Shown here one piece after another: positions 2,371 through 61,838 of a stretch of 64,000 nt of DNA. A program made the translations under genes and the position numbers. The notes below the pieces were generated by a model. The model saw only the letters and a list, made by a program, of their open reading frames with translations, ran no database searches and was not told the origin of the DNA. The DNA comes from Gemmatimonadaceae bacterium (lineage in GTDB: Bacteria > Gemmatimonadota > Gemmatimonadetes > Gemmatimonadales > Gemmatimonadaceae), in assembly GCA_040882285.1 (NCBI GenBank), contig JBBEBQ010000006.1, forward strand, positions 62,001 to 126,000. The letters run 5' to 3'. Each line of letters starts with the position of its first letter. Position 1 is the stretch's first letter.

Positions 2371-3918
2371 GTGACGTGTAACGTGAACAGATTTGATCGA
2401 CAACTGATTGCGCGGAACGCGCTTCTCGCGGGGCTTGTTGTGGCGGGCATTGGTGCCTTGTCTCCCGCGGGCGCGCAGGTCGCTTCCGGCCAACGCTACG
2501 ACCGCCTCGCGATCCGCAACGCCACGATCGTCAACGGCAACGGCACACCCGCTTCCGGCCCCGCCGACATAGTGATCCAGGGGAACACGATCGCCGAGAT
2601 AGTCTGGCTCGATCCCGTCGCCGTGCGCGAGGGCAGGGCCCGCCGCCCCGCGGCGGACGCCGAGATCGACGCGACCGGAAAGTTCGTGCTGCCGGGATTG
2701 ATCAACGCCCACGGGCACGTGCAGGAGGAGCGCGGCGGAATCCCCCAGCCGCTCGACTACGAGCTCAAGCTCTGGCTCGCGTCGGGCATCACCACGGTGA
2801 GAGACGTGGGGTCGCCCACGGAGCGGACTCTCGCGTTGCGAGAGCAGAGCCGCCAGAACCAGATCGCCGCGCCCCGGCTGTACGTGTACGCGCAGTTCGG
2901 CCGCCGCCCGACGCCCACGAATCCGGCGCTGGCCCGCGCGCGCGTGCGCGAGCTCAAGGCGCTCGGCGTGGACGGCATCAAGACGACCGGAATCGACCGC
3001 GACATACTTGCCGCGCTGCTCGATGAAGCGCGCAAGGTCGGGCTCAAAGTTGCGCACCACGCCGGGGTCGAGGAGAGCAATGCGTGGGACGACATCCGCG
3101 GCGGCACCAGCAGCATCGAGCACTGGTACGGCGTCCCCGACGCCGCGATCCCCGGCGGGGTGCAGAACTTTCCGGCCGACTACGATTACCGCGACGAGGT
3201 CGATCGCTTCCGCTACGCGGGCCGCCTCTGGCGCGAGGCGGACTCCACGAGACTGGTAGCGGTGCTCGACTCGATGGTCGCCGCGAAAGTTGCCTGGGTG
3301 CCCACGCTCGTCATCTACGAAGCGAGCAGGGACCTGCAGCGCGCGCAGACGCAGCCGTGGTTCGCCGACTACCTGCACCCGACGCTCGAGCGCTACTTCC
3401 GCCCTGACCCGGCCAACCACGGCTCGTACTTCTTCGGCTGGACCACCACCGACGAGACTTTCTGGAAGGAGAATTACCGCATCTGGATGCGCGCGCTGCG
3501 CGACTTCGAGCGGCGAGGCGGACTCATCGGCGCGGGCGAGGACGCGGGGTTCATCTACCAGATGTACGGCTTCGGCCTGATCCGCGAGCTGGAGCTGCAC
3601 GAGGAAGCGGGCTTCCACCCCATCAAGGTCATTCAGCACGCCACCGGCAACAACGCGCGCATTCTTGGCGAGGAGCACCGGCTCGGGCGGATCCGCGCCG
3701 GCTACCTTGCCGACTTGATCGTCGTGAACGGGAATCCGCTGGCCAACCTCAAGGTGCTGTATCCGACGGGCGTGGAGGAAATTCGGGACGGAAAGGCGAT
3801 CCGAACCGGCGGTATCGAATGGACGATCAAGGATGGAATTCCCTATCACGGCCCCACGTTGTTGCGCGAGGTGGCGGAGATTGTGGCCGCTGCGAGGGCG
3901 GGGGCTGCACGTGACTAG
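2371..3918 (+). CDS. Exported amidohydrolase family protein
   Basis: Metal-dependent hydrolase of the amidohydrolase superfamily (imidazolonepropionase/prolidase-like branch) that probably acts on amide or cyclic substrates outside the cytoplasm. An N-terminal hydrophobic segment at residues 16-35 ending in AGAQ is a signal peptide. The metal-binding H-G-H lies at 114-116, further histidines occur in a VAHHAG motif near 230, and a GAGEDAG motif near 390 carries the late aspartate. The start is GTG; a second in-frame GTG lies 12 nt downstream. The TAG stop falls inside the heptamer array that follows. Together with the next gene it forms a tandem of secreted amidohydrolases. Substrate unknown. 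Confidence 0.8.
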   Translation: MTCNVNRFDRQLIARNALLAGLVVAGIGALSPAGAQVASGQRYDRLAIRNATIVNGNGTPASGPADIVIQGNTIAEIVWLDPVAVREGRARRPAADAEIDATGKFVLPGLINAHGHVQEERGGIPQPLDYELKLWLASGITTVRDVGSPTERTLALREQSRQNQIAAPRLYVYAQFGRRPTPTNPALARARVRELKALGVDGIKTTGIDRDILAALLDEARKVGLKVAHHAGVEESNAWDDIRGGTSSIEHWYGVPDAAIPGGVQNFPADYDYRDEVDRFRYAGRLWREADSTRLVAVLDSMVAAKVAWVPTLVIYEASRDLQRAQTQPWFADYLHPTLERYFRPDPANHGSYFFGWTTTDETFWKENYRIWMRALRDFERRGGLIGAGEDAGFIYQMYGFGLIRELELHEEAGFHPIKVIQHATGNNARILGEEHRLGRIRAGYLADLIVVNGNPLANLKVLYPTGVEEIRDGKAIRTGGIEWTIKDGIPYHGPTLLREVAEIVAAARAGAARD

Positions 3919-3965
3919 TCACAAGTCACTAGTCACTAGTCACCAATGAATGGTCACCAGTCAAT
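3911..3965. repeat. Heptamer array, AGTCACN family (8 units)
   Basis: Read in sevens from 3917: AGTCACA, AGTCACT, AGTCACT, AGTCACC, AATGAAT, GGTCACC, AGTCAAT, preceded by GTGACT. The GTGACTAGTCAC at the left edge is a perfect palindrome. The array supplies the TAG stop of the upstream gene (3916-3918) and runs into the start region of the downstream gene. Confidence 0.85.
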
Positions 3966-6084
3966 GAACCGACTCCTCCTCGTCAGCCTCGCATCCGCCT
4001 GTATAGCGACAGGACTCCGCGCCCAATCCCCCGCCGAGCTCATCGTCACGGCGGATCGCATCTACACCGTCGAGCCGGGGCCGCACGTCCACGCCGTCGC
4101 CATTTCGAACGGGCGCTTCGTGTACGCGGGCTCGCGGCAGGGAGTAGAGCGGTATCGCGGGCCGAACACGCGCTCCATGGATTTCCCGGGCGCGTACATC
4201 TACCCAGGGTTGGCGGACGCGCACGCGCACATCAGTGGACTCGGCACGGCGCTCGAGCGCGTGCGGCTGGACGAAACGCGCACCTACGAGGAGGTCATAG
4301 CGCGCGTCGTGGAGCGCGCGGCGGCGCTTCCGCCCGGCGAATGGATCCTGGGCCGCGGGTGGGATCAGACGCGCTGGCCGGTGAAGGACTTTCCGACTCA
4401 CGACGCGCTGACTCGCGCGGTACCGAATCACCCGGTCGTGCTCACGCGCGTGGACGGACACGCGCTGCTGGCGAACGCGCGCGCGATGGAGCTCGCCGGC
4501 ATCACCGCCGCGACCCGTGATCCCGCGGGCGGCCGGATCGTCCGCGACGCATCCGGCCGGCCGACCGGAGTCTTCGTCGACAACGCCAAGAACCTGGTCA
4601 ACCGGGTAGTGCCGCGTGCCACGCCCGCGCAGACGCGACGGCGGCTGCTCGCGGCCGCGCGGGAAGTGCATAAATGGGGGCTGACCAGCGTGCACGACGC
4701 CGGCGAGTCGCGCGGCACGATCGACTTGATCGAGTCCATGGCGGCGCAAGGCGACTTCGATCTGCGCACCTACATAATGATCTCGGCCGACACCGCGGAC
4801 GAGCGGCACTACTTCAGCCGCGGGCTCGTGAACGGCGCGCACGGCAACCGCGTCTGGATCCGCTCCGTCAAGGTGTACGCCGACGGCGCGCTCGGCTCGC
4901 GCGGAGCCGCGCTGCTCGCGCCTTACGCCGACGACCCGGGCAACACCGGGCTGCTCGTCACTCCGCCCGAGCGCATTCAGAGTCTCGTGCACTCCGCGCT
5001 CGCCGCCGGCTTCCAGGTCGCGACGCACGCGATCGGCGACCGCGGCAACCGCATAGCGCTGGATGCGTACGAGGCGGGCCTCCGCCGCGCGCCGGCGCGC
5101 GATCACCGCTTCCGCGTGGAGCACGCGCAGGTGATCGCGCTCACTGACATTCCCCGGTTCGCGCGGCTCGGAGTCATCCCGTCCATGCAGGCGAGTCATC
5201 AGCGCAGCGATATGCGCTGGGCGGAGGAGCGGGTGGGACCGCAGCGGATCCGCGGCGCGTATGCCTGGAGGAAGCTGCTGCGGACCGGCGTGATCATTCC
5301 CAACGGCAGCGACGCGCCGGTGGAATCGGTGAATCCGCTCATCTCGTTCTACGCCGCCGTCACGCGGCAGGACGAGAGCGGCTACCCGCCCGGCGGCTGG
5401 TATCCCGCCGAGCGCATGACCAGGACCGAAGCATTGAAGGCGATGACGATCTGGCCGGCGTTCGCGGGCTTTCAGGAGTCGCTCATCGGCTCGATCAAGA
5501 CGGGGAAGCTCGCGGACTTCACCGTGCTCGACCGCGACATAATGACGGTACCGGCGAATCAGATCCTCTCCGCCAACGTGGTCGCGACGTTCGTGGGCGG
5601 CCGCCAGGTGTACAGCCGCGCCGTCGCGCAGCAGGTGCGGCAACCTCCCGAGCCACGCATCCATCCGGAGCCGCTCTTTCCGCTGCTCCCGCCGGGATTC
5701 GCGCTGGATTCCGCCGCGGTCGTGAGCGCGGTGGAGCGCTTTCACGCCGCGCTCGCGGCCGGTGACAGCGCGGCCGCGCTGTCGTATCTGGACGGGGACG
5801 TCGTCGTGCTCGAGTCCGGCGGCGTGGAGACGCGCGAGGAGTACAGGTCGCACCATCTCCCGGCCGACATCGCGTTCGCGCGCGCCGTCCCGGCCAATCG
5901 CGGACCGATGCGCGTGCGCGTCGAGGGTAACGCCGCGTGGGTCTCGTCCACGAGCGTCATGCAGGGGCAGTTCAACGGCAGGGCGGTCAATTCCGCCGGC
6001 GCCGAGCTGATGGTGCTCCGGCGGACGGAAGCCGGCTGGAAGATCAGCGCGATTCACTGGTCGTCGCGGGCGAGGAGACCTTAG
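3964..6084 (+). CDS. Exported amidohydrolase (YtcJ-like) with C-terminal SnoaL/DUF4440-like domain
   Basis: The amidohydrolase_3/YtcJ-type TIM barrel spans roughly residues 25-570: the H-A-H metal pair is at 87 and 89, followed by the family-typical YADGALGSRGA and THAIGDRGN motifs. From about residue 581 to 706 there is a second domain starting AVERFHAALAAGDS, typical of DUF4440/SnoaL-like folds. An ATG at 3946 is also open, but the ATG at 3964 begins a clean signal peptide (hydrophobic LLLVSLASACIATG ending in RAQ), so it is preferred. The protein is probably periplasmic or secreted. Fusion of an amidohydrolase with a SnoaL-like tail is less common. Substrate unknown. Confidence 0.8.
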   Translation: MNRLLLVSLASACIATGLRAQSPAELIVTADRIYTVEPGPHVHAVAISNGRFVYAGSRQGVERYRGPNTRSMDFPGAYIYPGLADAHAHISGLGTALERVRLDETRTYEEVIARVVERAAALPPGEWILGRGWDQTRWPVKDFPTHDALTRAVPNHPVVLTRVDGHALLANARAMELAGITAATRDPAGGRIVRDASGRPTGVFVDNAKNLVNRVVPRATPAQTRRRLLAAAREVHKWGLTSVHDAGESRGTIDLIESMAAQGDFDLRTYIMISADTADERHYFSRGLVNGAHGNRVWIRSVKVYADGALGSRGAALLAPYADDPGNTGLLVTPPERIQSLVHSALAAGFQVATHAIGDRGNRIALDAYEAGLRRAPARDHRFRVEHAQVIALTDIPRFARLGVIPSMQASHQRSDMRWAEERVGPQRIRGAYAWRKLLRTGVIIPNGSDAPVESVNPLISFYAAVTRQDESGYPPGGWYPAERMTRTEALKAMTIWPAFAGFQESLIGSIKTGKLADFTVLDRDIMTVPANQILSANVVATFVGGRQVYSRAVAQQVRQPPEPRIHPEPLFPLLPPGFALDSAAVVSAVERFHAALAAGDSAAALSYLDGDVVVLESGGVETREEYRSHHLPADIAFARAVPANRGPMRVRVEGNAAWVSSTSVMQGQFNGRAVNSAGAELMVLRRTEAGWKISAIHWSSRARRP

Positions 6085-6088
6085 AAAC

Positions 6089-6123
6089 GGTGACTAGTGA
6101 CTAGTGACTGGTGACTAGTAAGG
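6089..6123. repeat. Heptamer array, AGTGACT family (5 units)
   Basis: GGTGACT, AGTGACT, AGTGACT, GGTGACT, AGTAAGG read in sevens, immediately after the stop of the amidohydrolase gene. The heptamer is the reverse complement of the AGTCACT unit found at 3911-3965. Confidence 0.85.
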
Positions 6124-6160
6124 GCAGCGGGCGTTGATAAACCATGCACCAAAGGGAGCC

Positions 6161-6679
6161 ATGACGAACCCGCGTTTCCCCATCGGCGAGTTTCAGCAGC
6201 CCGACAAGCTTTCTGAAGCCGAGCGCGTGGCGGCCATCGCGAAGATCGACGCGATGCCCGCGACGCTCCGCGCCGCGGTGGCAGGCATGTCCGACGCGCA
6301 GCTCGACAGCACTTACCGGGAAGGGAGCTGGACGCTGCGACAGGTGGTGCACCACCTCGCCGACAGCCATGTCAATTCCTACACTCGTTTTCGCCTGGCG
6401 CTGACGGAGGATCACCCCAGGATAAAGCCGTACGACGAAGGGAAGTGGGCCGAGCTGGAGGACGCGCGCACGCTGCCCGTGGAAGTTTCGCTCGAGCTGC
6501 TCGAGGCGCTGCACTCGCGCTGGGTGGCGCTGTTACGCTCGCTGAAGCCGAAGGATTTCGCGCGGACCATCGATCACCCCGAAAACGGCACCATGTCCGT
6601 CGATCAGCTGCTCGCGATGTACGCCTGGCACGGCGAGCACCATATCGCGCACATTAGGCTGGCGCATGAACAGCAGTGA
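6161..6679 (+). CDS. DinB/YfiT-type putative metal-dependent hydrolase
   Basis: A 172-residue DinB_2 superfamily four-helix protein, close to the YfiT (bacillithiol transferase-like) branch by its opening PIGEF motif. The expected histidine triad is visible as VVHHLADSH around residues 62-71 and HGEHHIAHI around 158-166. The ATG at 6161 is preceded by AAAGGGAGCC, a good ribosome binding site, which decides the start against an upstream in-frame ATG. The TGA stop lies within an AGTGACT repeat unit, so gene end and repeat coincide. Convergent with the next gene with no gap. Cytoplasmic; substrate unknown. Confidence 0.8.
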   Translation: MTNPRFPIGEFQQPDKLSEAERVAAIAKIDAMPATLRAAVAGMSDAQLDSTYREGSWTLRQVVHHLADSHVNSYTRFRLALTEDHPRIKPYDEGKWAELEDARTLPVEVSLELLEALHSRWVALLRSLKPKDFARTIDHPENGTMSVDQLLAMYAWHGEHHIAHIRLAHEQQ

Positions 6680-6688
6680 CTAGTCACC
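6675..6688. repeat. Two-unit heptamer palindrome shared by two convergent stop codons
   Basis: AGTGACT followed by AGTCACC forms a near-perfect palindrome. It contains the TGA of the plus-strand DinB gene (6677-6679) and the TAG of the minus-strand gene (6680-6682). Confidence 0.75.
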
Positions 6689-7879
6689 GGTTTTCCCGTG
6701 CGCCGCCCGCAGCATCTCGCGCGCGCCGGCGCTCAGCTCCACATGCCTCCGCGCCATCATCCTCTCCGCCACCACCAGAAACTTGTCGATCTCGTACCGC
6801 TCGCCGTCGCCCCAGGCGAACGGCGGCACCGATTTCGGCGGCATGCCCGTGGCGAACACGTTCGCGCCCGCGCCCACGATCGTGCCGGTCGTCAGCATCG
6901 TGCCGATGCCGGTCTTGGAGTAGTCGCCGAAGAAAGATCCGAGGAACTGCTGCTTCGTCCCCTGCAGACCGTTCGCGGTCTGCAGCTGCACCGGGCCGTA
7001 GGTGTTCTTCATGTTGCTTGTGGTCGTGCCGGCGCCGAGGTTGACCCAGCGGCCGAGATAGGAGTGGCCGAGGAAGCCGGTGTGTCCCTTGTTGCTGTGG
7101 CCGAGCACGATCGTGTTGCTGACTTCGCCGCGCACTTTGCTCACCTCGCCGAGCGAGCTCGACGCTATCCGGTCGCCGACGAGCACGCAATTCTCCCCGA
7201 TGTAGCACGGCCCAGTGATCCGCGTGAACGCCGGGACCTCGGTGCCGCGCCGGATCAGAACCGGTCCGCTCGTGAGATCGAACACCACTTGCGGCTCGAC
7301 CTTCGCGCCCGCTTCGCAGAACAACGGGTGCTCGCCGAGCACGATGCAGTCGCGCGGAGTCGCCACCTCGAGCTCGATACCCAGAATCGGGATGTCTTCC
7401 TGCAGCTGATCCACCAGCGTGCCGATGAGATCCCAGACGTTCTCGATCCACCGGCCGGCGACCTCCACACCCTTTGCGCGCTCCTGCGCCAGCTCCTCCA
7501 GCGAAAGCTGTCCCTCGCCGAACCGGGATGCGTGATGGCTGGAGTTGAGGCGTACGGCGACGACTTTGCCGCCGTTCTTCCAGACTCGCGTCTTCGGATC
7601 GACCTTGGCGGCCCTCAACGCGGGCACGAAGCGGGAGTTGGCTACGAGACTGCCCGGCACGACGTCCGAGTCCGAGCATACGGCGGGCGGCGCCTCCGGC
7701 TCGTCGAACGCCGCGAGGTGCGCCGCGCCGATGAATCCCGTGACTTTCACGCCGAACGCGCGCTCCCATCTTTTCCGGATCAGCTCGGCACCGGCCCGTA
7801 GCTCGGACGCGGGACGCGTCAGCGCGAACGGCTCGAACGCGCGCGCCGCCGCATCGTCGTACAGAAAGAAGTCGCTCAT
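6680..7879 (-). CDS. GlmU-like sugar-nucleotide/left-handed beta-helix protein
   Basis: A 399-residue protein of the putative sugar nucleotidyltransferase group (GlgC/GlmU-like). The N-terminal half is a degenerate nucleotidyltransferase-type region starting FFLYDD. The C-terminal part (about 200-370) has left-handed beta-helix hexapeptide repeats, including VLVGDRIASSSLGEVSKV, and a GAGTTTSNMKNTYGP motif characteristic of this family. Its start overlaps the stop of the upstream manC-like gene by ATGA, so the two are translationally coupled and probably work in one nucleotide-sugar pathway for envelope polysaccharide. The stop codon lies in a GTGACTAG repeat. Confidence 0.75.
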   Translation of the reverse strand: MSDFFLYDDAAARAFEPFALTRPASELRAGAELIRKRWERAFGVKVTGFIGAAHLAAFDEPEAPPAVCSDSDVVPGSLVANSRFVPALRAAKVDPKTRVWKNGGKVVAVRLNSSHHASRFGEGQLSLEELAQERAKGVEVAGRWIENVWDLIGTLVDQLQEDIPILGIELEVATPRDCIVLGEHPLFCEAGAKVEPQVVFDLTSGPVLIRRGTEVPAFTRITGPCYIGENCVLVGDRIASSSLGEVSKVRGEVSNTIVLGHSNKGHTGFLGHSYLGRWVNLGAGTTTSNMKNTYGPVQLQTANGLQGTKQQFLGSFFGDYSKTGIGTMLTTGTIVGAGANVFATGMPPKSVPPFAWGDGERYEIDKFLVVAERMMARRHVELSAGAREMLRAAHGKTGD

Positions 7880-8916
7880 GAGATGCTCTTGATCTCCGGC
7901 GGCAGGGAGTCGACGAGCTTCTTCAGATCCCCGGACTTCTCCACCGTGGTTACGAGCGTCAATCCCGGCCGGCTCACCACCACCAGGCCGTCCACGCCAT
8001 ACATCACCACCGCGCCGCCCTCGGCGTGCACGACATTCTGGCGCGCCTCGAGCAGATGCGTGCGGCCGCTCCGCACGTTGCCCGCCTCGTCCGCCGCGCG
8101 CGCGCGGCGGAGCGCGCTCCACGTGCCTATGTCGTCCCACCCGAACTCGCCGCGCATGACCAGCACGTTCGAGCTGCGCTCGAGCACGCCCACGTCCACC
8201 GACACGGATTTCACGAACGCGAAGAACTCGTCGCGCGAGCGTCCGCGCGGGAGGGCGTGCCGCTCCAGCGCGGGCGTCACCTCCGGCGAGTGTCGCCGCA
8301 GCTCGTCGATGAAATCGGAGGCCCGCCAGCAGAATATCCCCGAGTTCCACAGCGCGCCGGATCCGACGAGCAGCTTCGCGCCCTCACTGTCCGGCTTCTC
8401 GATGAACCGCCGCACCCGGAACCCTGCGTCCACCGCCGCTCCCGGCTCGATGTAGCCGAATCCCGTGTCGGGCCGGGTCGGCACGATTCCGACCGTCACC
8501 AGCGCGCGCTTCGATTCCGCGAGGGTCGCCGCGTTTCGCAGCGTTTCCGCGAACAAGGCGTCGTCCCTGATCGCCCAGTCCGCGTGAATGCAGATCATCG
8601 TGCCGTCCTTCTCGCGCGCGACGATCTCCGACGCCGCCCACGCGAGCGCTGCGGTGGTCCCGCTCGGCCGCGGCTCGGGGATGACGTTCTCCGGCGGGAT
8701 CTGCGGGAGCGTGCGCACGACGGCGTCCCGCAGCTCGGCGTTGGTGAGCACCAGCGTGTTGGCGGGCTCCGCGACCAGCGCCATGCGGCGCGCGGCGTTG
8801 GCCAGCAGCGGCTCTCCGTTAATCAGCGGCAGGAGCTGCTTCGGGCGCGACGGCGTGCTCAGCGGCCAGAAGCGGGAGCCGATGCCGCCGGCCAGTATCA
8901 CCGCCCACCTCGTCAC
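7876..8916 (-). CDS. Mannose-1-phosphate guanylyltransferase-type NTP transferase
   Basis: Nucleotidyltransferase that charges a hexose-1-phosphate with NTP, most likely GDP-mannose synthesis. The 346-residue sequence opens with the family signature LAGGIGSRFWPLS (residues 8-20) followed by PKQLLPL. Further ManC-type motifs are RPSGTTAAL near 83, GYIEPG near 154, RFIEKP near 170 and GWDDIGTW near 269. There is no fused phosphomannose isomerase domain, so this is the short form. The start is GTG at 8916. It lies upstream of, and overlaps, the GlmU-like gene. Confidence 0.85.
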   Translation of the reverse strand: MTRWAVILAGGIGSRFWPLSTPSRPKQLLPLINGEPLLANAARRMALVAEPANTLVLTNAELRDAVVRTLPQIPPENVIPEPRPSGTTAALAWAASEIVAREKDGTMICIHADWAIRDDALFAETLRNAATLAESKRALVTVGIVPTRPDTGFGYIEPGAAVDAGFRVRRFIEKPDSEGAKLLVGSGALWNSGIFCWRASDFIDELRRHSPEVTPALERHALPRGRSRDEFFAFVKSVSVDVGVLERSSNVLVMRGEFGWDDIGTWSALRRARAADEAGNVRSGRTHLLEARQNVVHAEGGAVVMYGVDGLVVVSRPGLTLVTTVEKSGDLKKLVDSLPPEIKSIS

Positions 8917-8944
8917 CGCCGGGTCCCCGCTGCGACGCGACGCA

Positions 8945-9382: not shown

Positions 9383-9604
9383 GTGAGCCAGACCACCGCC
9401 GGGAGCGTAGGCATCGGTGTCAAATGGAAGAGGTGGCTCGGCCCGTCTCCGCTGGCGCCGCGCCGATAGTCCAAAACTAACAGCGGGTAACAACCGGGGG
9501 ACTCGGATAGTTGTCAAATTGCAATCGCTTGAAGTGCCGTGACTTAGGCAATACGTTACAACTCTTAACCGGAGCCACACCTGTCAACCGTTTCCAATCC
9601 GCGC

Positions 9605-11491: not shown

Positions 11492-11494
11492 CAG

Positions 11495-12634: not shown

Positions 12635-12641
12635 GCGTACT

Positions 12642-12778
12642 CCGGGGATTTGGACGGGGAATCCAAGTTCGGAGTGTGGCGGTTCGGAGTTGGCAGTAGG
12701 GGGTTGAGCGGTATCGCTCCGAACTGACCCCTCCAAACTGCCACACTCCAAACTTGGATTCCCTTGACGAATCCCAGG
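12642..12778. repeat. Large inverted repeat (about 48-bp arms) between kinase and helicase genes
   Basis: The left arm (12642-12689) and the reverse complement of the right arm (12731-12778) agree at about four of five positions, including the shared cores GGGAATCCAAGTT and GGAGTGTGGC. The inner part continues with GGGGGTT/AACTGACCCC and ends in an AGCG-GTAT-CGCT apex, so the single strand could fold into one hairpin of about 137 nt. Within each arm the phrase GGAG/CTCC recurs with a spacing near 14-15 nt, twice the heptamer period seen elsewhere. It could act as a terminator. Confidence 0.75.
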
Positions 12779-12813
12779 ACTCTCCCTCTCTGACGGCATC
12801 TTATCTTTGATCG

Positions 12814-15092
<2,279 letters not shown>

Positions 15093-15093
<1 letters not shown>

Positions 15094-21319: not shown

Positions 21320-21375
21320 GCTGCGTGCTGCGTGCTGCGTGCTGCGTGCTGCGTGCTGCGTGCTGCGTGCTGCGT
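21320..21375. repeat. Heptamer array, exactly eight GCTGCGT units
   Basis: Fifty-six bases of perfect GCTGCGT tandem repeat between the third bactofilin gene and ggt, starting 4 bp after the bactofilin stop. The same heptamer occurs on one strand or the other at 29427-29468, 34063-34097 and 34688-34708. It lies 46 bp upstream of the ggt ATG. Confidence 0.95.
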
Positions 21376-21421
21376 GCTAACTTCATCGCGCAAGGCAGCG
21401 CCTCTCAATTTGGACCGACCA

Positions 21422-25455: not shown

Positions 25456-25504
25456 GGCTCCTGCAACTCCTCAAAAAACCGCCGCCACCGCCGCTCCCGT
25501 CACA

Positions 25505-25590
25505 ACGCGATCTTCTTCGACCGCGCGCACGGCACGTTCTGGGGCGGGTCGAGCAACCACGGCGAGGACTACGGGATCGCCTGGCAGGGT
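25505..25590 (+). pseudogene. Relic of the 3' end of a second ggt gene
   Basis: About 28 codons reading NAIFFDRAHGTFWGGSSN then HGEDYGIAWQ closely match the last codons of the intact ggt (23228-23308), with several silent and a few missense differences. The frame has lost its stop and runs into the inverted repeat that begins at 25592. Nothing else of this second copy remains. Confidence 0.8.
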
Positions 25591-25591
25591 T

Positions 25592-25795
25592 GCGGATTGT
25601 GGATTAAGGACTTTGCGGCCTCAGGACTAACCGCAATCGACGATCGACGATTAAATGAGGACCGCGGAGAGAAGCGTCTCGCCGCGTCGTCCCCCCCTGA
25701 GTTCCGCTCATCCTCAGCCCTCACTTAATCGCCGATCCGCAATGGCCGTTGGTCCTGAGGCCGCAAAGTCCTCAATCCGAAGTCGCAAGCAATGG
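25592..25795. repeat. About 200-bp inverted repeat filling the gap after the ggt relic
   Basis: The outer arms share GGACTTTGCGGCCTCAGGAC (left arm near 25611-25630, right arm near 25755-25775 on the other strand) and extend into GGATT/AATCC sequences. A nested inner pair reads CGACGATTAAATGAGGAC on the left and its near complement (CCTCACTTAATCGCCG) on the right. Parts read in sevens (ATCGACG, ATCGACG, ATTAAAT). The 360-bp gap 25456-25817 contains only this element and the ggt relic. Confidence 0.8.
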
Positions 25796-25817
25796 CAAAA
25801 CTCCACAACTGCCTACC

Positions 25818-29399: not shown

Positions 29400-29426
29400 T
29401 CTACTCTCGGCTCGATGCCGCGAGGA

Positions 29427-29468
29427 CGCAGCACGCAGCACGCAGCACGCAGCACGTAGCACGCAGCG
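29427..29468. repeat. Heptamer array, CGCAGCA (6 units), with conserved flank
   Basis: Six units CGCAGCA (one CGTAGCA, last CGCAGCG), the complement of the GCTGCGT array at 21320. On the right it runs into GCGCTTTTCCC and on the left into CTCGATGCCGCGAG. These flanks recur at 34098-34108 and 34672-34710, marking a composite element. Confidence 0.9.
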
Positions 29469-34055: not shown

Positions 34056-34185
34056 GAAAAGCGCTGCGTGCTGCGTGCTGCGTGCTGCGTGCTGCGTCCT
34101 CGCGGCATCAGGGCGGGCAGAGCCGACGGTGGTGCCTCGCAGGGGAAAAGCAGCTATCAGCTATCAGCTATCAGCAGTCAGTGGA
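34056..34185. repeat. Composite heptamer element, left copy
   Basis: Order: GGAAAAGC, five GCTGCGT units (34063-34097), CTCGCGGCATC, about 25 variable bases, GGTGGTGCCTCGCAGGGGAA, then a second array of CAGCTAT, CAGCTAT, CAGCTAT, CAGCAGT. The same module order appears inverted at 34603-34712. It lies between the exonuclease-helicase start and the small membrane-protein gene. Confidence 0.85.
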
Positions 34186-34601: not shown

Positions 34602-34602
34602 C

Positions 34603-34712
34603 ACTGCCAACTGATAACTGACGACTCGTTACTGTTTTTCCCCTGCGAGGCACCACCATTGCCTCCCGCGCCTCGATGCCGCGAGCACGCAGCACGCAGC
34701 ACGCAGCGCTTT
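34603..34712. repeat. Composite heptamer element, right (inverted) copy
   Basis: Array ACTGCCA, ACTGATA, ACTGACG, ACTCGTT, ACTGTTT, then TTCCCCTGCGAGGCACCACC, a variable part, GATGCCGCGAG, three CGCAGCA-type units (34688-34708) and CGCTTTT. Its reverse complement follows the module order of the copy at 34056-34185. The two copies face each other across one gene. Confidence 0.85.
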
Positions 34713-46596: not shown

Positions 46597-46649
46597 CGTC
46601 CAGGTGTTCACGCGCACGATGTGTGCAAGGGAAGGGCCACTTGAAGCTC

Positions 46650-46745
46650 TTGGCTGTTGGCTGTTAGCTGTTGGTCTCCGCGACGAAATCTACTGGCTGC
46701 GGTCCGCGGCGCAGTCAAGCCAATAGCCAAGAGCCAATAGCCAAC
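46650..46745. repeat. Inverted pair of heptamer arrays before murA
   Basis: Left array TTGGCTG, TTGGCTG, TTAGCTG, TTGGTCT (46650-46677); right array AGCCAAT, AGCCAAG, AGCCAAT, AGCCAAC (46718-46745). The two are reverse complements and could fold around a 40-nt loop. They fill most of the 46597-46791 gap between divergent genes, so the murA and DUF948 promoters must lie in or near them. Confidence 0.88.
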
Positions 46746-48812: not shown

Positions 48813-48819
48813 AGGGCTC

Positions 48820-48851: not shown

Positions 48852-48854
48852 TGA

Positions 48855-48883: not shown

Positions 48884-48913
48884 TAAGGTTGTCGCGCTGA
48901 TCGTTGCGAGACG

Positions 48914-48944: not shown

Positions 48945-48971
48945 GTTCTCTGGAACTACATCATAAAGTAA

Positions 48972-49433: not shown

Positions 49434-49441
49434 AGGCCCAG

Positions 49442-51025: not shown

Positions 51026-51345
51026 TCGCCACCGATTCCGCGAAGCTGCTTCGTCTCATCGGGCTGGGCGTCCGCGGCCGCACGGTCGTGATCGGCGTGG
51101 ACCAGGTGAGGCGCTCGGTGCTGAAGGGGAAAGTGAAGCTGGCGGTGGTGGCGCCTGACGCCGCGCGCAACAGCTTGGACAAGGTGCTGCCGCTGCTGGA
51201 AGCGCGGCACGTGCGGGTGATGGAAGCGCCGAGCGCGCGGGAGCTGGGCGCGGCGGTGGGTAGAGCATCAACGGCTGCGGTCGGGGTTCTCGATGCGCAG
51301 CTGGCGAGGGGGATGTTGGTGACTGAAGGGCATGCTGGTGACTAG
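51022..51345 (+). CDS. YlxQ-like L7Ae/L30e RNA-binding protein
   Basis: About 107 residues of the L7Ae/L30e/YlxQ fold: AKLLRLIGLGVRGRTVVIG, VDQVRRSVLKGKVKLAVVAPDA, then KVLPLLEARHVRV. This RNA-binding family normally sits between nusA and infB, as here (the usual YlxR gene is absent). There is no ATG, GTG or TTG at the right place; CTG at 51022, overlapping the nusA stop, gives the full domain. The TAG stop is contributed by a GTGACTAG heptamer array. Confidence 0.75.
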   Translation: MIATDSAKLLRLIGLGVRGRTVVIGVDQVRRSVLKGKVKLAVVAPDAARNSLDKVLPLLEARHVRVMEAPSARELGAAVGRASTAAVGVLDAQLARGMLVTEGHAGD

Positions 51346-51357
51346 TCACTAGTCACA
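51337..51357. repeat. Heptamer array, GGTGACT/AGTCACT (3 units)
   Basis: GGTGACT, AGTCACT, AGTCACA read in sevens. It holds the TAG stop of the ylxQ-like gene (51343-51345) and lies 26 bp before the infB start. The same heptamer is used at 3.9, 6.1 and 6.7 kb. Confidence 0.8.
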
Positions 51358-51382
51358 TTTCTAAGCAGTGGAGAACCACCAG

Positions 51383-54059
<2,677 letters not shown>

Positions 54060-54067
<8 letters not shown>

Positions 54068-56176: not shown

Positions 56177-57867
56177 AGTTGAAGCATAGAATCGCGATCA
56201 TTCTGGCGCTCATCGCCGGCTCGCTGTGGACGCTTTATCCGCGCACGGTCGTCGAGCGCGTCAAGCGTGACGGCGTCTTCGTGTACGACACGGTTCAGCG
56301 GGTTCCGCTCAAGCGCGGGCTGGATCTCGTGGGCGGCATTCACATGGCGCTCGAGATCGACGAGTCCAAGGCGCCCGTAACGGACAAGGCCGCGGCGCTC
56401 ACCAACGCGCTGACCGTCCTGCGCAACCGTGTGGACGAATTCGGCGTGGCCGAGCCCGTGGTGCAGCGGGTGGGCGACGACCGGATCATCGTGGAGCTTC
56501 CCGGAATCGACGATCCCGTCCGCGCGCAGGACATCGTGCAGAAGTCGGCGTTCCTGGAGTTCCAGATAACCGACAAGTCGCAGGCATTGGACAAGGCGCT
56601 GCCGCGGCTCGACGGGATCATCCGCTCGCGCGGACTGACCACGCCCGGCGCGCCCGGCGCGCCCGGCGCGCCCGCGCGCGCCGCGGCGGCTCCGGCGCAG
56701 ATGCCGCGGACGCCGGCCGGGCTTGGCTCGCTGCTGCAGCGGGACACGACGGACACCGCGCGCGCGGCGGGAGACACGGGCACGCGCGACACGGCGGCCG
56801 TGGCGGCGGGCACGGGACCAGGGCCGCTCTCGAGTCTCATCCAGCAGGGATCCATGCCGGGCGAATATCTGGTCGCGGCAGAGAACGTCGGGCCGGTCGA
56901 GCACTATCTGTCGCTGCCCGAGATTCAGGCCGCGCTACCTCCCGGCAAGGTGGTGCGGTGGAGCAGCGATTCGATGGTCATCGCGAACAGCACGTACCGG
57001 CCGTTCTACGTGCTCGACGCGCGCCCGATCATCACCGGGCAGTACATCCAGGACGCGCAGCCCAACCAGGATCCGCTCGAGGGCACGCTCGTGACCTTCG
57101 AGCTGAACAATGAAGGCGGCCGCCAGTTCCGGCGGGAGACCAGCCGGCACATTCAGGACTACATGGCGATCGTGCTCGACCAGCGCGTCATGGGCCGCCC
57201 GCCGGTGATTCAGGGCGCCATCGGCACGCGCGGGCAGATAACCATGGGCGGACAGGATCTCGCCGCCGCGCAGGATCTCGCGCTGGTGCTGCGGGCCGGA
57301 GCGCTGCCCGTCCCGCTCAAGATCGTGGAGTCCGGGGCGATCGGGGCGAGCCTCGGGCAGGACGCGGTGCAGCAGGGAATCCGCGCCGGAATCCTCGGCC
57401 TCGCGCTCGTGATTCTGATAATGGTCGTGTACTACAAGCTGTCGGGCGTATTCGCCGTGGGCGGGCTGGCCGTGTACACGCTGATCACGCTCGCCGTGCT
57501 CGCGTCGTTCGGCGCGGTGCTCACGCTGCCGGGAATCGCCGGCTTCGTGCTCTCCATCGGAATGGCGCTGGACGCCAACTTCCTGATCTTCGAGCGCACG
57601 CGCGAGGAAATGGACGCCGGCAAGACTCCGCGCGCGGCGATCGACGAGGGCTTCCAGCACGCGTGGAGCGCGATCATCGACACGCACGTGACCACCGCGT
57701 TGACCGCGGCGATCCTGTACCAGTTCGGCACCGGTCCCGTCCAGGGATTCGCGGTCGCGTTGCTCGCCGGAATCGGCGCCTCGCTCGTCAGCGCCATCTT
57801 CGTGGTGCGGACGTTCTTCCTCATCTGGCTACACCGTACCGGCGGAACCAAGCCGGTCAGCATCTAA
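56173..57867 (+). CDS. secD: Protein translocase subunit SecD
   Basis: 564-residue membrane protein that, with SecF and the proton-motive force, helps complete Sec export. TM1 near 5-20, the RGLDLVGGIHMALEID motif near 45, and the P1 domain with VDEFGVAEPVVQRVGDDRI. An extra low-complexity segment (about 155-230) follows, opening with repeats of GAP and rich in Ala, Thr and Asp. Then TM2-6 with GIAGFVLSIGMALDANFLIFERTREE. secF follows after 7 bp. Confidence 0.94.
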   Translation: MKLKHRIAIILALIAGSLWTLYPRTVVERVKRDGVFVYDTVQRVPLKRGLDLVGGIHMALEIDESKAPVTDKAAALTNALTVLRNRVDEFGVAEPVVQRVGDDRIIVELPGIDDPVRAQDIVQKSAFLEFQITDKSQALDKALPRLDGIIRSRGLTTPGAPGAPGAPARAAAAPAQMPRTPAGLGSLLQRDTTDTARAAGDTGTRDTAAVAAGTGPGPLSSLIQQGSMPGEYLVAAENVGPVEHYLSLPEIQAALPPGKVVRWSSDSMVIANSTYRPFYVLDARPIITGQYIQDAQPNQDPLEGTLVTFELNNEGGRQFRRETSRHIQDYMAIVLDQRVMGRPPVIQGAIGTRGQITMGGQDLAAAQDLALVLRAGALPVPLKIVESGAIGASLGQDAVQQGIRAGILGLALVILIMVVYYKLSGVFAVGGLAVYTLITLAVLASFGAVLTLPGIAGFVLSIGMALDANFLIFERTREEMDAGKTPRAAIDEGFQHAWSAIIDTHVTTALTAAILYQFGTGPVQGFAVALLAGIGASLVSAIFVVRTFFLIWLHRTGGTKPVSI

Positions 57868-57874
57868 GGGACCC

Positions 57875-58873
57875 ATGCTTCGCGTACTGCACAACACGAA
57901 AATCAATTTTATCCGCCTGTGGCGCGTGTCCACGGCGTTCTCGCTGCTGCTGATCATTCCCGGCCTGATCTGGATCGCGCTCAGCGGGTTCCACTACAGC
58001 ATCGAGTTCACCGGCGGCACGCTCAAGCGGATCCAGTTCACCGATCCGCCGCCGAGCGTGGCGGACGTCCGCGCCGCCATGGCGGAGGGCGGCCTGCCGC
58101 AGGTGGAGATCCAGACCTTCGGTAGTCCGAACGAGCTGATCATGCGGGCGCAGGACCCGAGCACGGTCGCGCAGCAGGACGCCGGCGCCGAAGTCGTCTC
58201 GCGGCAGATTACCGCGGCGCTCGATGCGAAGTTCGGCGCTGACAAATACGAGGTGCTCCTCACCGAAGGGGTCGGGCCGAAGGTGGGTAGCGAGCTCCGG
58301 CGGAACGCCATGATCGCGCTGGCGATCGCGTTCATCACGACTTTGATCTACCTGGCGTGGCGGTTCGAGTGGCGGTTCGGGCTCGCCGCCGTGCTTGCGA
58401 CGGTCCACGACATTCTCGCGACGCTGGCGTTCATGAAGTACATGAACCTCGAGATATCGCTGTTCGTGGTCGGCGCGCTGCTGACCGTGATCGGTTACTC
58501 GCTGAACGACACGGTCGTGGTGTTCGACCGCGTGCGCGAGAACCTGAAGAAGTTCCCGAAGACGGGCCTGTACGACCTGCTCAACCGGTCGGTGAACGAG
58601 ACGCTGCCGCGGACGGTGCTGACCGGATCCACGACGCTGGCCACGCTGCTGTCGCTGCTCATCTTCGGCGGCACCGTGATCCGGCCGTTCGCCTGGGTGC
58701 TGACGTGGGGAATCATCATCGGAACGTTCAGCTCGGTGTACGTGGCCGGGCCGTTGCTCCTGTGGATCAACCACCAGTGGCCGCGGCACGCCGCGGCATC
58801 GGGACGCGCCGACCGCCTGGCCCAGGCCACGCGGCAGACCGAGCGGGAGAAGAGGCCCGCGCCCGCGCGATGA
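57875..58873 (+). CDS. secF: Protein translocase subunit SecF
   Basis: 332 residues, six membrane helices. N-terminal P1-like region with FTGGTLKRIQFTDPP, signature YSLNDTVVVFDRVRENLK near 207, and a NRSVNETLPRTVLTGSTTLATLL helix. A basic C-terminal tail ends in TEREKRPAPAR. It partners SecD. The TGA overlaps the ATG of the DUF4956 gene (ATGA), so the following gene is coupled to the translocase pair. Confidence 0.94.
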   Translation: MLRVLHNTKINFIRLWRVSTAFSLLLIIPGLIWIALSGFHYSIEFTGGTLKRIQFTDPPPSVADVRAAMAEGGLPQVEIQTFGSPNELIMRAQDPSTVAQQDAGAEVVSRQITAALDAKFGADKYEVLLTEGVGPKVGSELRRNAMIALAIAFITTLIYLAWRFEWRFGLAAVLATVHDILATLAFMKYMNLEISLFVVGALLTVIGYSLNDTVVVFDRVRENLKKFPKTGLYDLLNRSVNETLPRTVLTGSTTLATLLSLLIFGGTVIRPFAWVLTWGIIIGTFSSVYVAGPLLLWINHQWPRHAAASGRADRLAQATRQTEREKRPAPAR

Positions 58874-59922
58874 CGACGCCTGTCGGCGCCCACGGCCAGG
58901 CAACAAGCTCTTCGGCGCCGCCGCATTGGAAGCGCATGTGGGGCAACGTGGTGCTCCGCACCATTGTCTATTACGCGCTGCTCGTGGGCGTGGCCGCGCT
59001 CACCTGGGAGTATCTCCCGCCGACCGACGTCGGGGCCGCGGGAGGCGACGGCGCCACGCTGACCGGGAGCGCCGACATCATCGCGCGGATCGCCGATGAT
59101 TCGCTGACGCTGTCGGTGTTCCTCGCGATGGCGACCGCGGTGCTCGTGTCCATCCCGGTCGCGTGGATCTACACACTGACGCGGCAGAAGCGCGGCTTCC
59201 AGCAGTCGGTGGTGCAGATGCTGGTGCTGCTCCCGCCAGTCGTCGCCGGAATCGTGATGCTGGTCAAGCACAGCCTCGCGCTCGCCTTCAGCCTCGCGGG
59301 CGCGGCCGCGGCCGTCCGCTTCCGCAACACGCTCGACGACAGCAAGGACGCGGCATACGCCTTTCTCGCGATCGGGATCGGCATCGCCGCCGCGGTCGAG
59401 CTGCCGGTGGCGCTGGTGCTCTCGGTCGTGTTCAACGCGGTGATTCTGGGACTGTGGTACACCGACTTCGGCCGCGTGCCGGCCGCGCTGGAAGGGAAGG
59501 AAGCGCAGCGGAAGCTCGAGCGGGCGCTCGCCGTCGCGAGCCGGACGGGGACGTTCGTGGCGCGGCTCGACAAGGAGCTGTTCGAGCACATGTCGCCCGA
59601 GCAGCTCGAGGCCGCGGCGGACAAGGCGCAGCGCCGGCGCCGGCGCAACGCGCCCGATTTCATGGACGAGAACGTCGAGGCCGAGCGCGACAACCTGCTG
59701 CTGCGGGTCGCGACGTTCGACCCGCCGGCCGCGCGCAAGGCGGTGGAGCCGGTGCTCGACCAGCGGGTGAAGCGCTGGCGCTACGGCGGGCTGGTGCGCG
59801 AGCAGACCGGCGCCACGGTCATCGAGTACATGGTGGATCTCAAGCGGCGCGAGCCGGCGCAGAGCGTGCTCGACGCGCTGCGTGACCTTGGAGCGCACGT
59901 CGTGCGCGCGGAGCTGAAATGA
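58870..59922 (+). CDS. DUF4956 family membrane protein
   Basis: 350 residues: four membrane helices (about 38-56, 86-104, 114-130, 155-185) with the DUF4956 core VRFRNTLDDSKDAAYAFLAIG. A soluble C-terminal domain of about 150 residues contains a basic RRRRRNAPDFMDE loop and a YMVDLKRREPAQSVLDALRDL ferredoxin-like end. DUF4956 proteins often sit next to VTC-type and CotH-type genes, and the next gene may be CotH-like. Function unproven. Coupled to secF by ATGA, and its own TGA overlaps the next ATG. Confidence 0.82.
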   Translation: MTTPVGAHGQATSSSAPPHWKRMWGNVVLRTIVYYALLVGVAALTWEYLPPTDVGAAGGDGATLTGSADIIARIADDSLTLSVFLAMATAVLVSIPVAWIYTLTRQKRGFQQSVVQMLVLLPPVVAGIVMLVKHSLALAFSLAGAAAAVRFRNTLDDSKDAAYAFLAIGIGIAAAVELPVALVLSVVFNAVILGLWYTDFGRVPAALEGKEAQRKLERALAVASRTGTFVARLDKELFEHMSPEQLEAAADKAQRRRRRNAPDFMDENVEAERDNLLLRVATFDPPAARKAVEPVLDQRVKRWRYGGLVREQTGATVIEYMVDLKRREPAQSVLDALRDLGAHVVRAELK

Positions 59923-60971
59923 AAAAAGCTATTGGCTATTGGCTATTGGCTGTTGGCTATGCGGCCGTCGCCGGGGCGCAGGCGCCCGCGGACAGCGCGC
60001 CCAAGCCGTACGAGCTGCAGAAGCTTTTCTCGCACGACAGCGTCCTGCGGCTCACGCTCACCACCAACTTCCGGGCTCTGTCCCGCTCGCGGTCGGGTGC
60101 AGCGAGGTACTACGGCGCGAAGCTGACGTACAGCGACACCGGAGCTTCCCCGATCACGATTCCGCTGCGGGTGCGGGCGCGCGGACTCTGGCGCAGGGTG
60201 AACTGCGAGATGCCGCCGGTGCTGCTCAACTTCTGGACCGACAGCTCGAAGAAGACGCTGTTTGCGCGCCTCGATCGCGGCCGGCTGGTCGTGCACTGCC
60301 GCAACAACGACGCGTTCGAGCAGTACGTGCTCCAGGAATTCCAGCTGTACCGCATATACAACCTGCTGACGCCGTTCAGCCACCGCGCGCGGCTGGCGCA
60401 CGTGACGTACGTGGACAGCGCGTCCGGGAGGCAGACCGCCGCGCGGCACGGGTTCATACTCGAGGACGACGACGACATGGCCGCGCGCAACGGCGGCAAG
60501 CAGATGGAGCTGAAGGGCGCGAAGTCCGGAGACCTCGATCCGTTCACCGACGCGCTGGTGGGAGTGTTCCAGTATCTCATCGGCGGAAGCGACTGGTCGG
60601 TGGCCGGGCTGCACAACATTCAGCTGGTGAGCCAGCCCGAGGGCGTCGTCCGCGCGGTGGCGTACGACTTCGACTGGTCCGGCGCCGTCAACGCGAGCTA
60701 CGCCAAGCCCGATTACCGTTTGCCGATCACGGCCGTCCGGCAGCGCCTGTTCCGCGGCTACTGCGCGCCGCGGGAGCAGTTCACCCGGGTGTTCGCGCTG
60801 TTCAACGAACAGAAGCCGGCGATCTACGCGCTGTACTCCGATCACATCGGCCGGCTCATGAACCCCGATGTCGTACGGCGTACGCTCGCGTACTTCGACG
60901 AATTTTACGAGACGATAAACGATCCCAGGAGGGCGGCCGAGCTCGTCCGGAGCTGCAAGGAGGCGCAGTAA
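59919..60971 (+). CDS. Exported protein, distantly CotH-like, with repeat-encoded signal peptide
   Basis: 350 residues. The signal peptide KKAIGYWLLAVGYAAVAGAQA is largely encoded by the GCTATTG heptamer array at 59928-59962. The mature part has RARGLWRRVNCEMPPVLL (about 87-104), CRNNDAFEQYVLQEFQLYRI and an AYDFDWSGAVN motif, an order that recalls CotH-type kinases (basic RxRG, then a late D-x-D). I do not see a full CotH signature. The ATG overlaps the DUF4956 stop. Unsure between CotH-like kinase and an unnamed family. Confidence 0.65.
   Translation: MKKAIGYWLLAVGYAAVAGAQAPADSAPKPYELQKLFSHDSVLRLTLTTNFRALSRSRSGAARYYGAKLTYSDTGASPITIPLRVRARGLWRRVNCEMPPVLLNFWTDSSKKTLFARLDRGRLVVHCRNNDAFEQYVLQEFQLYRIYNLLTPFSHRARLAHVTYVDSASGRQTAARHGFILEDDDDMAARNGGKQMELKGAKSGDLDPFTDALVGVFQYLIGGSDWSVAGLHNIQLVSQPEGVVRAVAYDFDWSGAVNASYAKPDYRLPITAVRQRLFRGYCAPREQFTRVFALFNEQKPAIYALYSDHIGRLMNPDVVRRTLAYFDEFYETINDPRRAAELVRSCKEAQ
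59928..59962 (+). repeat. Heptamer array inside a signal-peptide coding region (5 units)
   Basis: GCTATTG, GCTATTG, GCTATTG, GCTGTTG, GCTATGC. Three units equal seven codons, so the array encodes alternating IGYWLLAVGY-type residues. Its reverse complement array lies at 61808-61838. Confidence 0.9.
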
Positions 60972-60975
60972 GGGC

Positions 60976-61758
60976 GTGACTGCGGTGGCTTCGTTCATCG
61001 ACAGTCACGCCCACCTCGTCGACCCGGCGTTCGATTCCGACCGGGCAGAGGCGATCGAGCGGGCCCGCCGGACCGGCTGCGAGGGGATCGTCGCGATAGG
61101 CACGTCACCGGCGGATTCCCGCGCGGCCCTCGAGCTCGCGCACGCCAATGCCGGCTTCGTGTACGCGACCGCCGGCCACCATCCACACGAGGCCCCCTCC
61201 TTCGACCCGGCGCGCGACGGCGAGCTGCTGCGCGAGCTGCTCGATCAGGGCGCGGTCGCGGTCGGCGAGTGCGGGTTGGACTACCACTACGATCACTCGC
61301 CGCGGGACGCGCAGCTACGCGCGTTCAGCGCCCAGCTCGCCCTGGCCGCCGAGCTGCGCAAGCCGGCGGTCGTGCACACGCGCGAGGCCGAGTCCGACAT
61401 GGAGGCCATGATCCGCGAGGCCGGCACCTCCGGGGTGATCGGCGTGCTGCACTGCTTCACCGGGCCGGCGCGGCTCGCCGACGCGGCGCTCGCGGCCGGC
61501 TGGTACGTCTCGTTCGCGGGGATCGTGACGTTCAGGAAGTGGGCCGGGGACGATCTCATTCGGGCCGTTCCCGACGATCGCATTCTCGTCGAATCCGACT
61601 CCCCCTACCTTGCCCCCGTCCCGCACCGCGGCAAGCGCAACGAGCCCGCGTACGTCAGCCTGACCCTCGCGAAAGTGGCGGAGGCGCGGGGAGTGCAGGC
61701 GCAAGCGCTCGGTGAGCGCGTAACGACTAACGCGCGCCGCCTATTCGGACTGGACTAG
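60976..61758 (+). CDS. TatD family metal-dependent hydrolase
   Basis: 260-residue TIM-barrel DNase/hydrolase. FIDSHAHLVD (7-16) supplies the first metal histidines; GHHPHEAP near 67, GECGLDYHYDHSP near 97 with the bridging glutamate, HTREAESD near 135, HCFTGPARLA near 159, and VESDSPYLAPVPHRG near 208 complete the site. It probably acts in nucleic acid turnover or repair. GTG start at 60976, 4 bp after the CotH-like gene stop. Confidence 0.92.
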   Translation: MTAVASFIDSHAHLVDPAFDSDRAEAIERARRTGCEGIVAIGTSPADSRAALELAHANAGFVYATAGHHPHEAPSFDPARDGELLRELLDQGAVAVGECGLDYHYDHSPRDAQLRAFSAQLALAAELRKPAVVHTREAESDMEAMIREAGTSGVIGVLHCFTGPARLADAALAAGWYVSFAGIVTFRKWAGDDLIRAVPDDRILVESDSPYLAPVPHRGKRNEPAYVSLTLAKVAEARGVQAQALGERVTTNARRLFGLD

Positions 61759-61807
61759 CTCTTGGCTGCACCGGTTCCCCGTGCGAGGTTTGATTCAGCA
61801 AGCGCAA

Positions 61808-61838
61808 AGCCAATAGCCAATAGCCAATAGCCAACAGC
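61808..61838. repeat. Heptamer array, AGCCAAT (4 units), before ridA
   Basis: AGCCAAT three times, AGCCAAC once, then AGCCC up to the ridA ATG at 61841. It is the reverse complement of the array at 59928 and matches the right arm at 46718. The TTCCCCGTGCGAGG 40 bp upstream resembles a module of the composite element near 34 kb. Confidence 0.9.

What the first reader, a model, noticed from the sequence alone, without database searches (positions are those of the whole stretch)
3911..61838. Family of tandem repeats with a strict 7-nt period, several different heptamers, placed at gene boundaries
At least a dozen intergenic sites carry 3-8 tandem units, always seven bases long, although the units differ: AGTCACT/AGTGACT (3.9, 6.1, 6.7, 51.3 kb), GCTGCGT/ACGCAGC (21.3, 29.4, 34.1, 34.7 kb), GCTATTG/CAATAGC (46.7, 59.9, 61.8 kb), CAGCTAT (34.15 kb) and ACTGNNN (34.6 kb). 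A fixed period with changing sequence points to a common generating mechanism, not copies of one element. Cyanobacterial STRR heptamers are the nearest described parallel that I know of; I do not know of one in this type of genome.
Basis: seen in the sequence. Interest (0 to 1): 0.85.

Follow-up and report, generated by a model that had tools for sequence, protein, structure and literature searches.

The report
Four-heptad inverted elements between genes
This bacterium (family Gemmatimonadaceae) has hundreds of its gene-to-gene gaps filled by small hairpin-forming DNA elements whose arms are built of about four 7-letter words, and the same words and architecture recur in unrelated phyla, which suggests a widespread and still unexplained element rather than simple copying slippage.

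Summary
In 462 kb of this genome lag 7 stands alone: 97 runs against 0-1 at lags 4, 5, 8, 10, 11 and 13, 98 of 106 arrays intergenic. They are not plain simple-sequence repeats. (1) All 28 same-family neighbouring pairs converge (forward arm, loop, reverse arm) and tested pairs fold as hairpins. (2) Arms are quantised at four heptads: GCTNTTR arrays of 3/4/5 units number 6/47/5 here and 35/73/35 in other phyla. (3) Five of seven positions are fixed while position 4 is free (adjacent-unit mismatch 0.51 against 0.01-0.04), and the two arms do not copy each other. (4) Occupied gaps are shared between congeners (odds ratio 112), yet 14 of 16 gaps shared with the closest relative carry a different heptad. 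(5) The same inverted GCTNTTR pair occurs in Bacteroidota, Acidobacteriota, Planctomycetota and others. Nearest known: Xanthomonas GGGANTN arrays (mostly four units, inverted pairs). Best explanation: MITE-like palindromic elements with four-heptad ends recognised by an unidentified protein; slippage only adjusts length. No transposase or target duplication was found.

The parts
3911..3966 (.). AGTCACT/GTGACTA element, mostly a reverse arm; its first unit contains the stop codon of gene 2383-3918
   Evidence: lag-7 array 3911-3943. The G001 ortholog has a complete inverted pair of AGTGATT type at this gap (50 site 54).
6090..6119 (+). GTGACTA array (forward arm), 6 bp after the stop of gene 3964-6084
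   Evidence: the G001 ortholog is a full pair with AGTGATT (site 55)
21320..21378 (+). GCTGCGT array, 8.4 perfect units, between stop 21316 and the next gene (the called start at 21332 lies inside the array and is probably wrong)
29423..29467 (-). GCTGCGT array (reads ACGCAGC on +), about 6 units
34063..34100 (+). GCTGCGT array (forward arm), 5 units, followed by about 50 nt and a second array
34151..34181 (+). CAGCTAT array (GCTATCA), 3.6 units, inner side of the same gap
34602..34640 (.). degenerate ACTGNNN heptads (ACTGCCA ACTGATA ACTGACG ACTCGTT ACTG)
   Evidence: seen in sequence; below the lag-7 threshold
34684..34707 (-). GCTGCGT array (reads AGCACGC on +); its flanking core is an inverted copy of that at 34063-34150
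46646..46672 (+). GCTNTTR forward arm of an inverted pair
   Evidence: hairpin z -4.6
46718..46744 (-). GCTNTTR reverse arm of the same pair (45-nt loop)
51335..51356 (.). short AGTCACT stretch (about 2-3 units) overlapping the stop codon of gene 51088-51345
   Evidence: score 10, below threshold
59928..59958 (+). GCTNTTR array of four units, 5 bp after stop 59922
61800..61839 (-). GCTNTTR reverse arm; a partial forward arm (GCTCTTGGCTG) lies at the stop codon near 61757

Best explanation
These are small (about 60-160 bp) palindromic intergenic elements: a forward arm of about four tandem heptads, a loop of 0-60 nt with a weak common core, and a converging reverse arm of about four heptads. 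They behave like non-autonomous, MITE-like elements whose arms are arrays of binding sites, one heptad per subunit or module, for a sequence-specific protein. Several families with different heptads coexist. They fill many of the tolerant gaps and are lost, decay and are replaced by another family at the same gap over short evolutionary times. Replication slippage and recombination act only secondarily, lengthening a minority of arrays to 6-13 units. Shown: period, pairing, convergence, quantisation at four, fixed and free positions, shared loop core, gap sharing, family replacement, spread across phyla. Inferred: that a protein reads the heptads, and that it is a transposase or recombinase that moves the elements.
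For: Convergence 28/28, and interchange of GCTNTTR and GCTGCGT arms in the correct orientation. Peak at four units in G000, G003, G001 and other phyla. Fixed positions 1, 2, 3, 5, 6 with free position 4, found by motif-independent detection and repeated in three species. Arms agree at position 4 no more than shuffled arms (0.32 against 0.38), so they are not template-switch copies. Loops of GCTNTTR and AGTGAYT elements share GCGGAA..GGAAC..GGGG.TGTT (GCGGAA in 13 of 49 loops, about 1.1 expected). Lineage-specific bursts: GCTGCTA 82 matches in G001, 28 in G000, 0 in G002 and G003. Family replacement and near-empty gaps in congeners, with one probable nested case, site 33. GCTNTTR inverted pairs across phyla (about 0.01 expected by chance over the 257-Gb collection, own calculation). 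No preference for gap type (tandem 0.22, divergent 0.16, convergent 0.21 occupied) and presence in five tRNA spacers, as expected of insertions tolerated between genes.
Against: No transposase was linked: no Y1/RAYT domain in any of the four congeneric genomes, and other transposase families were not tested. No target-site duplication or clean empty/filled site was shown; losses look like imprecise deletions with remnants (site 9). Position 4 is scattered at random from element to element, which copies of one recent master would not show. Gap sharing could also mean in-situ rewriting rather than new insertion.
Confidence: 0.45

Rival explanations
1. Host-maintained recognition arrays: the four-heptad arms are binding sites for a chromosome-organising or regulatory protein, kept by selection; family changes reflect co-evolution of the protein's specificity.
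For: Position-specific constraint kept between species whose loops diverged by about 17%; gaps shared by descent with the same family in G000 and G003 at 16 of 18 sites; parallel shift AGTGACT to AGTGATT across sites in G001 (genome-wide 101/26 against 26/87 matches).
Against: Absent or decayed in most corresponding gaps of G002; no link to gap type; 14 of 16 shared gaps changed family in the closest relative, often with loop and flanks changed too; several unrelated heptads in one genome, even in one tRNA cluster.
Confidence: 0.22
2. Classical short tandemly repeated repeats: polymerase slippage at a favoured 7-nt step, with inverted pairs from template switching.
For: Heptameric repeats are known to be over-represented in bacteria and slippage at a 7-nt contact has been proposed (cited in PMC4692102); unit numbers differ between species at some sites; a few long arrays (21320-21378; 13 units in L003).
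Against: Peak at four with few 3-unit and few exact 2-unit arrays; free position 4 beside fixed neighbours; arms not copies of each other; the same heptad in many phyla; 28/28 converging.
Confidence: 0.13
3. RNA-level elements: bidirectional terminators or mRNA-stabilising hairpins at gene ends.
For: Strong hairpins, z -4.6 to -11 in six paired elements; many arrays start within a few bases of stop codons; some have A- and T-rich outer flanks.
Against: Nearly as frequent between divergent as between convergent genes; site 50 lies downstream of a separate conserved hairpin with a T-run that looks like an intrinsic terminator; compensatory pairing at position 4 is absent; some pairs have non-complementary arms (L013, L016, L017).
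Confidence: 0.1
4. A templated writer (telomerase-like or reverse-transcriptase based) synthesises heptads at fixed gaps.
For: Fixed period with changing sequence; many arrays in a genome shift to a new heptad.
Against: A template would give uniform units, not a free fourth position; no candidate enzyme was sought or found; arms of about four units on both strands need a second step.
Confidence: 0.07
5. Assembly artefact.
For: Some contigs end in arrays (C3, C11, C21 and C5 of G000).
Against: Independent assemblies of other species have arrays in the same gaps; unit heterogeneity; other phyla, including the named strain Hymenobacter busanensis MA3.
Confidence: 0.01

Closest known systems
GGGAATC / GGGANTN heptameric repeats of Xanthomonas (PMC4692102)
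   Same: Period 7; intergenic; about 185 sites per genome; most sites have four units; fixed positions 1-4 and 6 with others variable; 70-75 converging inverted pairs; mostly between the same genes in two species with length and sequence variation.
   Different: One G-rich, quadruplex-forming heptad there; here several non-G-rich heptads coexist, family replacement occurs at the same gap, loops share a core, and the same word occurs in many phyla. The four-unit peak here, without G-tracts, suggests that quadruplexes are not the reason.
TAACTGA direct repeats of Beggiatoaceae, some cyanobacteria and Bacteroidota (PMC4679880)
   Same: Intergenic heptads, scattered phylogeny, no mechanism known.
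   Different: Numbers fall steadily (68, 40, 19, 1, 1 sets of 2-6 units) with no peak at four; one indirect repeat; single-base variants rare as repeats; mainly just before start codons.
Cyanobacterial STRR heptamers (from memory; cited in PMC4692102)
   Same: 7-nt period, intergenic, several heptads in one genome.
   Different: Not compared here by sequence; in Nostoc few inverted pairs were reported.
REP/BIME palindromes with RAYT transposases (PMC3733652)
   Same: Short intergenic palindromes in high copy, often paired.
   Different: No heptad arms; RAYT (Y1_Tnp) absent from the genus; a GTAG-tagged end was not seen, though not searched for systematically.
MITEs (general knowledge)
   Same: Size about 100 bp, terminal inverted repeats of about 30 bp, short non-coding core, high copy, intergenic.
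   Different: Target duplication and parent transposase not found; the inverted repeats are themselves direct-repeat arrays with a free position.

Membership tests
Heptameric intergenic tandem repeats (STRR-like) | tandem 7-bp units concentrated in intergenic DNA | tested here: met
Heptameric intergenic tandem repeats (STRR-like) | array length free and set by slippage (falling length distribution) | tested here: not met
   peak at four units for GCTNTTR; GCTGCGT and GCTGCTA samples are too small or fall steadily
Xanthomonas-type GGGANTN elements | mostly four units and converging inverted pairs | tested here: met
Xanthomonas-type GGGANTN elements | G-rich, quadruplex-forming unit | tested here: not met
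   units GCTNTTR, GTGAYTR, GCTGCGT, GCTGCTA contain no run of three G
MITE | terminal inverted repeats with short non-coding core | tested here: met
MITE | target-site duplication | tested here: inconclusive
   filled/empty comparisons leave no unambiguous junction
MITE | related autonomous transposon with the same ends | not tested
   only Y1_Tnp was searched (none)
REP/RAYT | RAYT (Y1_Tnp) gene in genome | tested here: not met
   0 of 4 genomes, controls ring
Intrinsic terminator | placement after gene 3' ends and not between divergent genes | tested here: not met
Known Rfam RNA family | match above gathering score | tested here: not met
   only tRNA-Sec in the window

The most novel reading that the evidence does not exclude
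A single kind of mobile or host-maintained element, defined by two converging four-heptad arms with one free position per heptad, is spread over many bacterial phyla and is read by an undescribed modular heptad-binding protein whose specificity changes between lineages; heptameric 'simple repeats' described so far (e.g. in Xanthomonas) would be members of it.
Probability: 0.35. Interest if true: 0.85.

Novelty: new variant of a known kind. Interest (0 to 1): 0.64.

Why it matters
Heptameric repeats have been noticed in bacterial genomes for decades and put down to slippage or quadruplexes. Arm length fixed at four, position-specific constraint, constant convergence, replacement of the word at conserved gaps and recurrence of one word across phyla argue for a recognised element instead. 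That makes the old question testable: find what binds four tandem heptads. It also bears on how intergenic DNA in compact genomes is filled and on why such assemblies break at these sites.

Tried and rejected
Tested and rejected: template-switch copying between arms, terminator-specific placement, RAYT mobilisation, known RNA family, assembly artefact. Only one viral contig of the IMG/VR collection carries the pair, so spread by viruses is not supported. A literature search with the sequences themselves gave only unrelated papers. A possible common core of all heptads was considered and dropped: with 14 registers per heptad such likeness is easily found by chance. The reversed-pattern control for AGTGATT is uninformative because that array is a mirror of itself. 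One search gives 100% identity at five positions by construction and is used only for the free position, the purine position, the loop and unit counts; one search likewise leaves position 4 free by construction and is not used as evidence.
Full report
CHECK OF THE OBSERVATION. The window is 67.6% G+C, about 93% coding by a simple gene finder, and lies in a 2.89-Mb genome of 27 contigs. Eleven lag-7 arrays occur in the window where 0.12 are expected, with none at other non-triplet lags except the multiples 14 and 21. In 462 kb of the genome, 98 of 106 arrays are intergenic; lag 7 gives 97 strong runs against 0-1 for lags 4, 5, 8, 10, 11 and 13.

ANATOMY. Most arrays belong to three families: GCTNTTR (59 arrays in the sample), GTGAYTR (25) and GCTGCGT (13). 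They often come as converging pairs: 65 of 104 family-assigned arrays have a partner within 110 bp, and of the 33 neighbouring pairs all 28 of the same family are forward-then-reverse, while three mixed pairs join GCTNTTR and GCTGCGT arms in the same orientation. Six paired elements fold as DNA hairpins far better than shuffled sequence (z -4.6 to -11); two unpaired arrays of the window do so weakly or not at all. Loops are 0-60 nt in most pairs and share a weak core, GCGGAA..GGAAC..GGGG.TGTT, in elements of both the GCTNTTR and GTGAYTR families. A cluster of seven tRNA genes has arrays of several families in or next to five of its spacers.

NOT ORDINARY SLIPPAGE. First, arm length is quantised: GCTNTTR arrays of 3, 4, 5 and 6 units number 6, 47, 5 and 8 in this genome, 1, 26, 0 and 1 in G003, 5, 14, 3 and 1 in G001, and 35, 73, 35 and 8 in loci of other phyla. 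Two-unit matches are left out of this comparison because with one mismatch allowed they include chance hits; exact two-unit runs number only 3, all intergenic. GTGAYTN arrays also peak at four in G000 and G001 (14 and 13), less sharply; GCTGCGT and GCTGCTA do not, in small samples. Second, GCTNTTR units are variable at one position: neighbouring units differ at position 4 in 51% of cases, at position 7 (a purine) in 21%, and at the other five in 1-4% (detection independent of the motif); the same holds in G001 and G003. Third, the free letter of one arm does not predict that of the other, so the arms were not made by copying each other, and hairpin pairing at that position is not conserved. 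Slippage would homogenise all positions alike and give a falling length distribution.

COMPARISON BETWEEN SPECIES. For four 20-kb stretches and one part of the window, orthologous gaps were read in the three congeners. Occupancy is shared: with G001 (95% identical in a test protein) the counts neither / only G001 / only G000 / both are 28/1/4/16 (odds ratio 112); with G003 (83%) they are 22/3/2/18; with G002 22/0/11/5. With the more distant G003, 16 of 18 shared gaps keep the family. With the closer G001, 14 of 16 differ: seven GCTNTTR to GCTGCTA, five AGTGACT to AGTGATT, one AGTGACT to GCTGCTA, and one GCTNTTR to AGTGATT where a remnant GAGCTTTTGGCTGTT lies inside the new pair (site 33). AGTGACT to AGTGATT is a one-letter change that can be in-situ rewriting; GCTNTTR to GCTGCTA often goes with a different loop and flanks and looks like replacement. 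Whole-genome counts agree: AGTGACT 101/26/0/10 and AGTGATT 26/87/2/0 in G000/G001/G002/G003; GCTGCTA 28/82/0/0. At site 9 the element with a homologous core is in G000, G002 and G003 and only a scrambled remnant in G001, so elements can be old and are lost imprecisely. At site 21 the four species carry AGTGACT, GTGATTG-type, degenerate GGTATTA-type and GGTATCA arrays. The arrays thus sit at persistent gaps while their words change.

SPREAD. Lag 7 dominates in most of these loci, and loops did not look alike across phyla by eye. Within the family, other genera lack this word but a few show other converging heptads, e.g. AGAGCGT in G018 and GGGCGNT in G016, and G044 in the same order has GGTTNTC repeats (control column). 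Most sampled relatives have few or none, so the heavy load is a trait of this genus. IMG/VR had one contig.

PLACEMENT AND FUNCTION. Occupancy depends little on gene orientation, and one array lies after a separate hairpin with a T-run that looks like an intrinsic terminator (site 50), so terminator or promoter roles are not the common denominator. The best-supported reading is a MITE-like element with four-heptad ends read by an unidentified protein. The chief rival is a host protein with arrays kept by selection. The first part (four-heptad converging element with position-specific constraint) is shown; the protein, the mobility and the route of replacement are inferred.

COMPARISON WITH THE KNOWN. 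The closest description is Rehm et al. 2015 (PMC4692102): Xanthomonas GGGANTN arrays, mostly four units, 70-75 converging pairs, positions 1-4 and 6 conserved, mostly between the same genes in two species. That work interpreted them as quadruplex-forming; the same architecture with non-G-rich words here suggests that the architecture is the essence. MacGregor 2015 (PMC4679880) describes TAACTGA repeats with a different, falling length distribution. REPs differ in structure and their RAYT enzyme is absent. I therefore call this a new variant of a known but unexplained kind.

LIMITS. Gene calls are from my own simple finder; the species are genome assemblies, three of them fragmented, with breaks at arrays; orthologous gaps were read for about 80 kb; other-phylum loci were chosen by a pattern that requires about two units per arm, which does not by itself produce a peak at four.

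Noticed in passing
window 12658-12761; L007 10693-10786; L010 14472-14568; L015 2698-2791 and 3617-3717; L343 2035-2145: A second class of palindromes: outer stem GGAATCCAAG...CTTGGATTC enclosing 75-92 nt of inverted AGTNNGG-like or GCCAGAA-like words; at L018 about 650-690 the same stem has only a 10-nt loop in G000 while G003 has the long insert.
   Followed up: partly
window 25456-25817, 2185-2382; G003 at site 30 of L002: Another inverted intergenic repeat with words such as GATTAAGTGAGGAC and GGACTGAGG, about 200 bp, present in G003 and absent from G000 at one orthologous gap.
   Followed up: no
L014 17509-17558; L018 4960-5066; L005 11001-11068: Short dispersed repeats of about 50 bp shared by all four congeners, including G002, which is poor in heptad arrays.
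   Followed up: no
window 63298-63390: Selenocysteine tRNA gene (RF01852, 68.6 bits).
   Followed up: no
window 3911-3918, about 6676-6687, 51335-51345: AGTCACT-type units supply the stop codon of the upstream gene, each read as GAC TAG in frame, so these elements may reset gene ends.
   Followed up: no
G000 contigs C3, C11, C21 (starts) and C5 (end); G001 C415: Contigs end inside heptad arrays, suggesting that longer arrays exist than the assembly shows.
   Followed up: no
G044 (same order), whole genome: The reversed control pattern GGTTNTC in tandem occurs 19 times there: another heptad family in a related order member.
   Followed up: no
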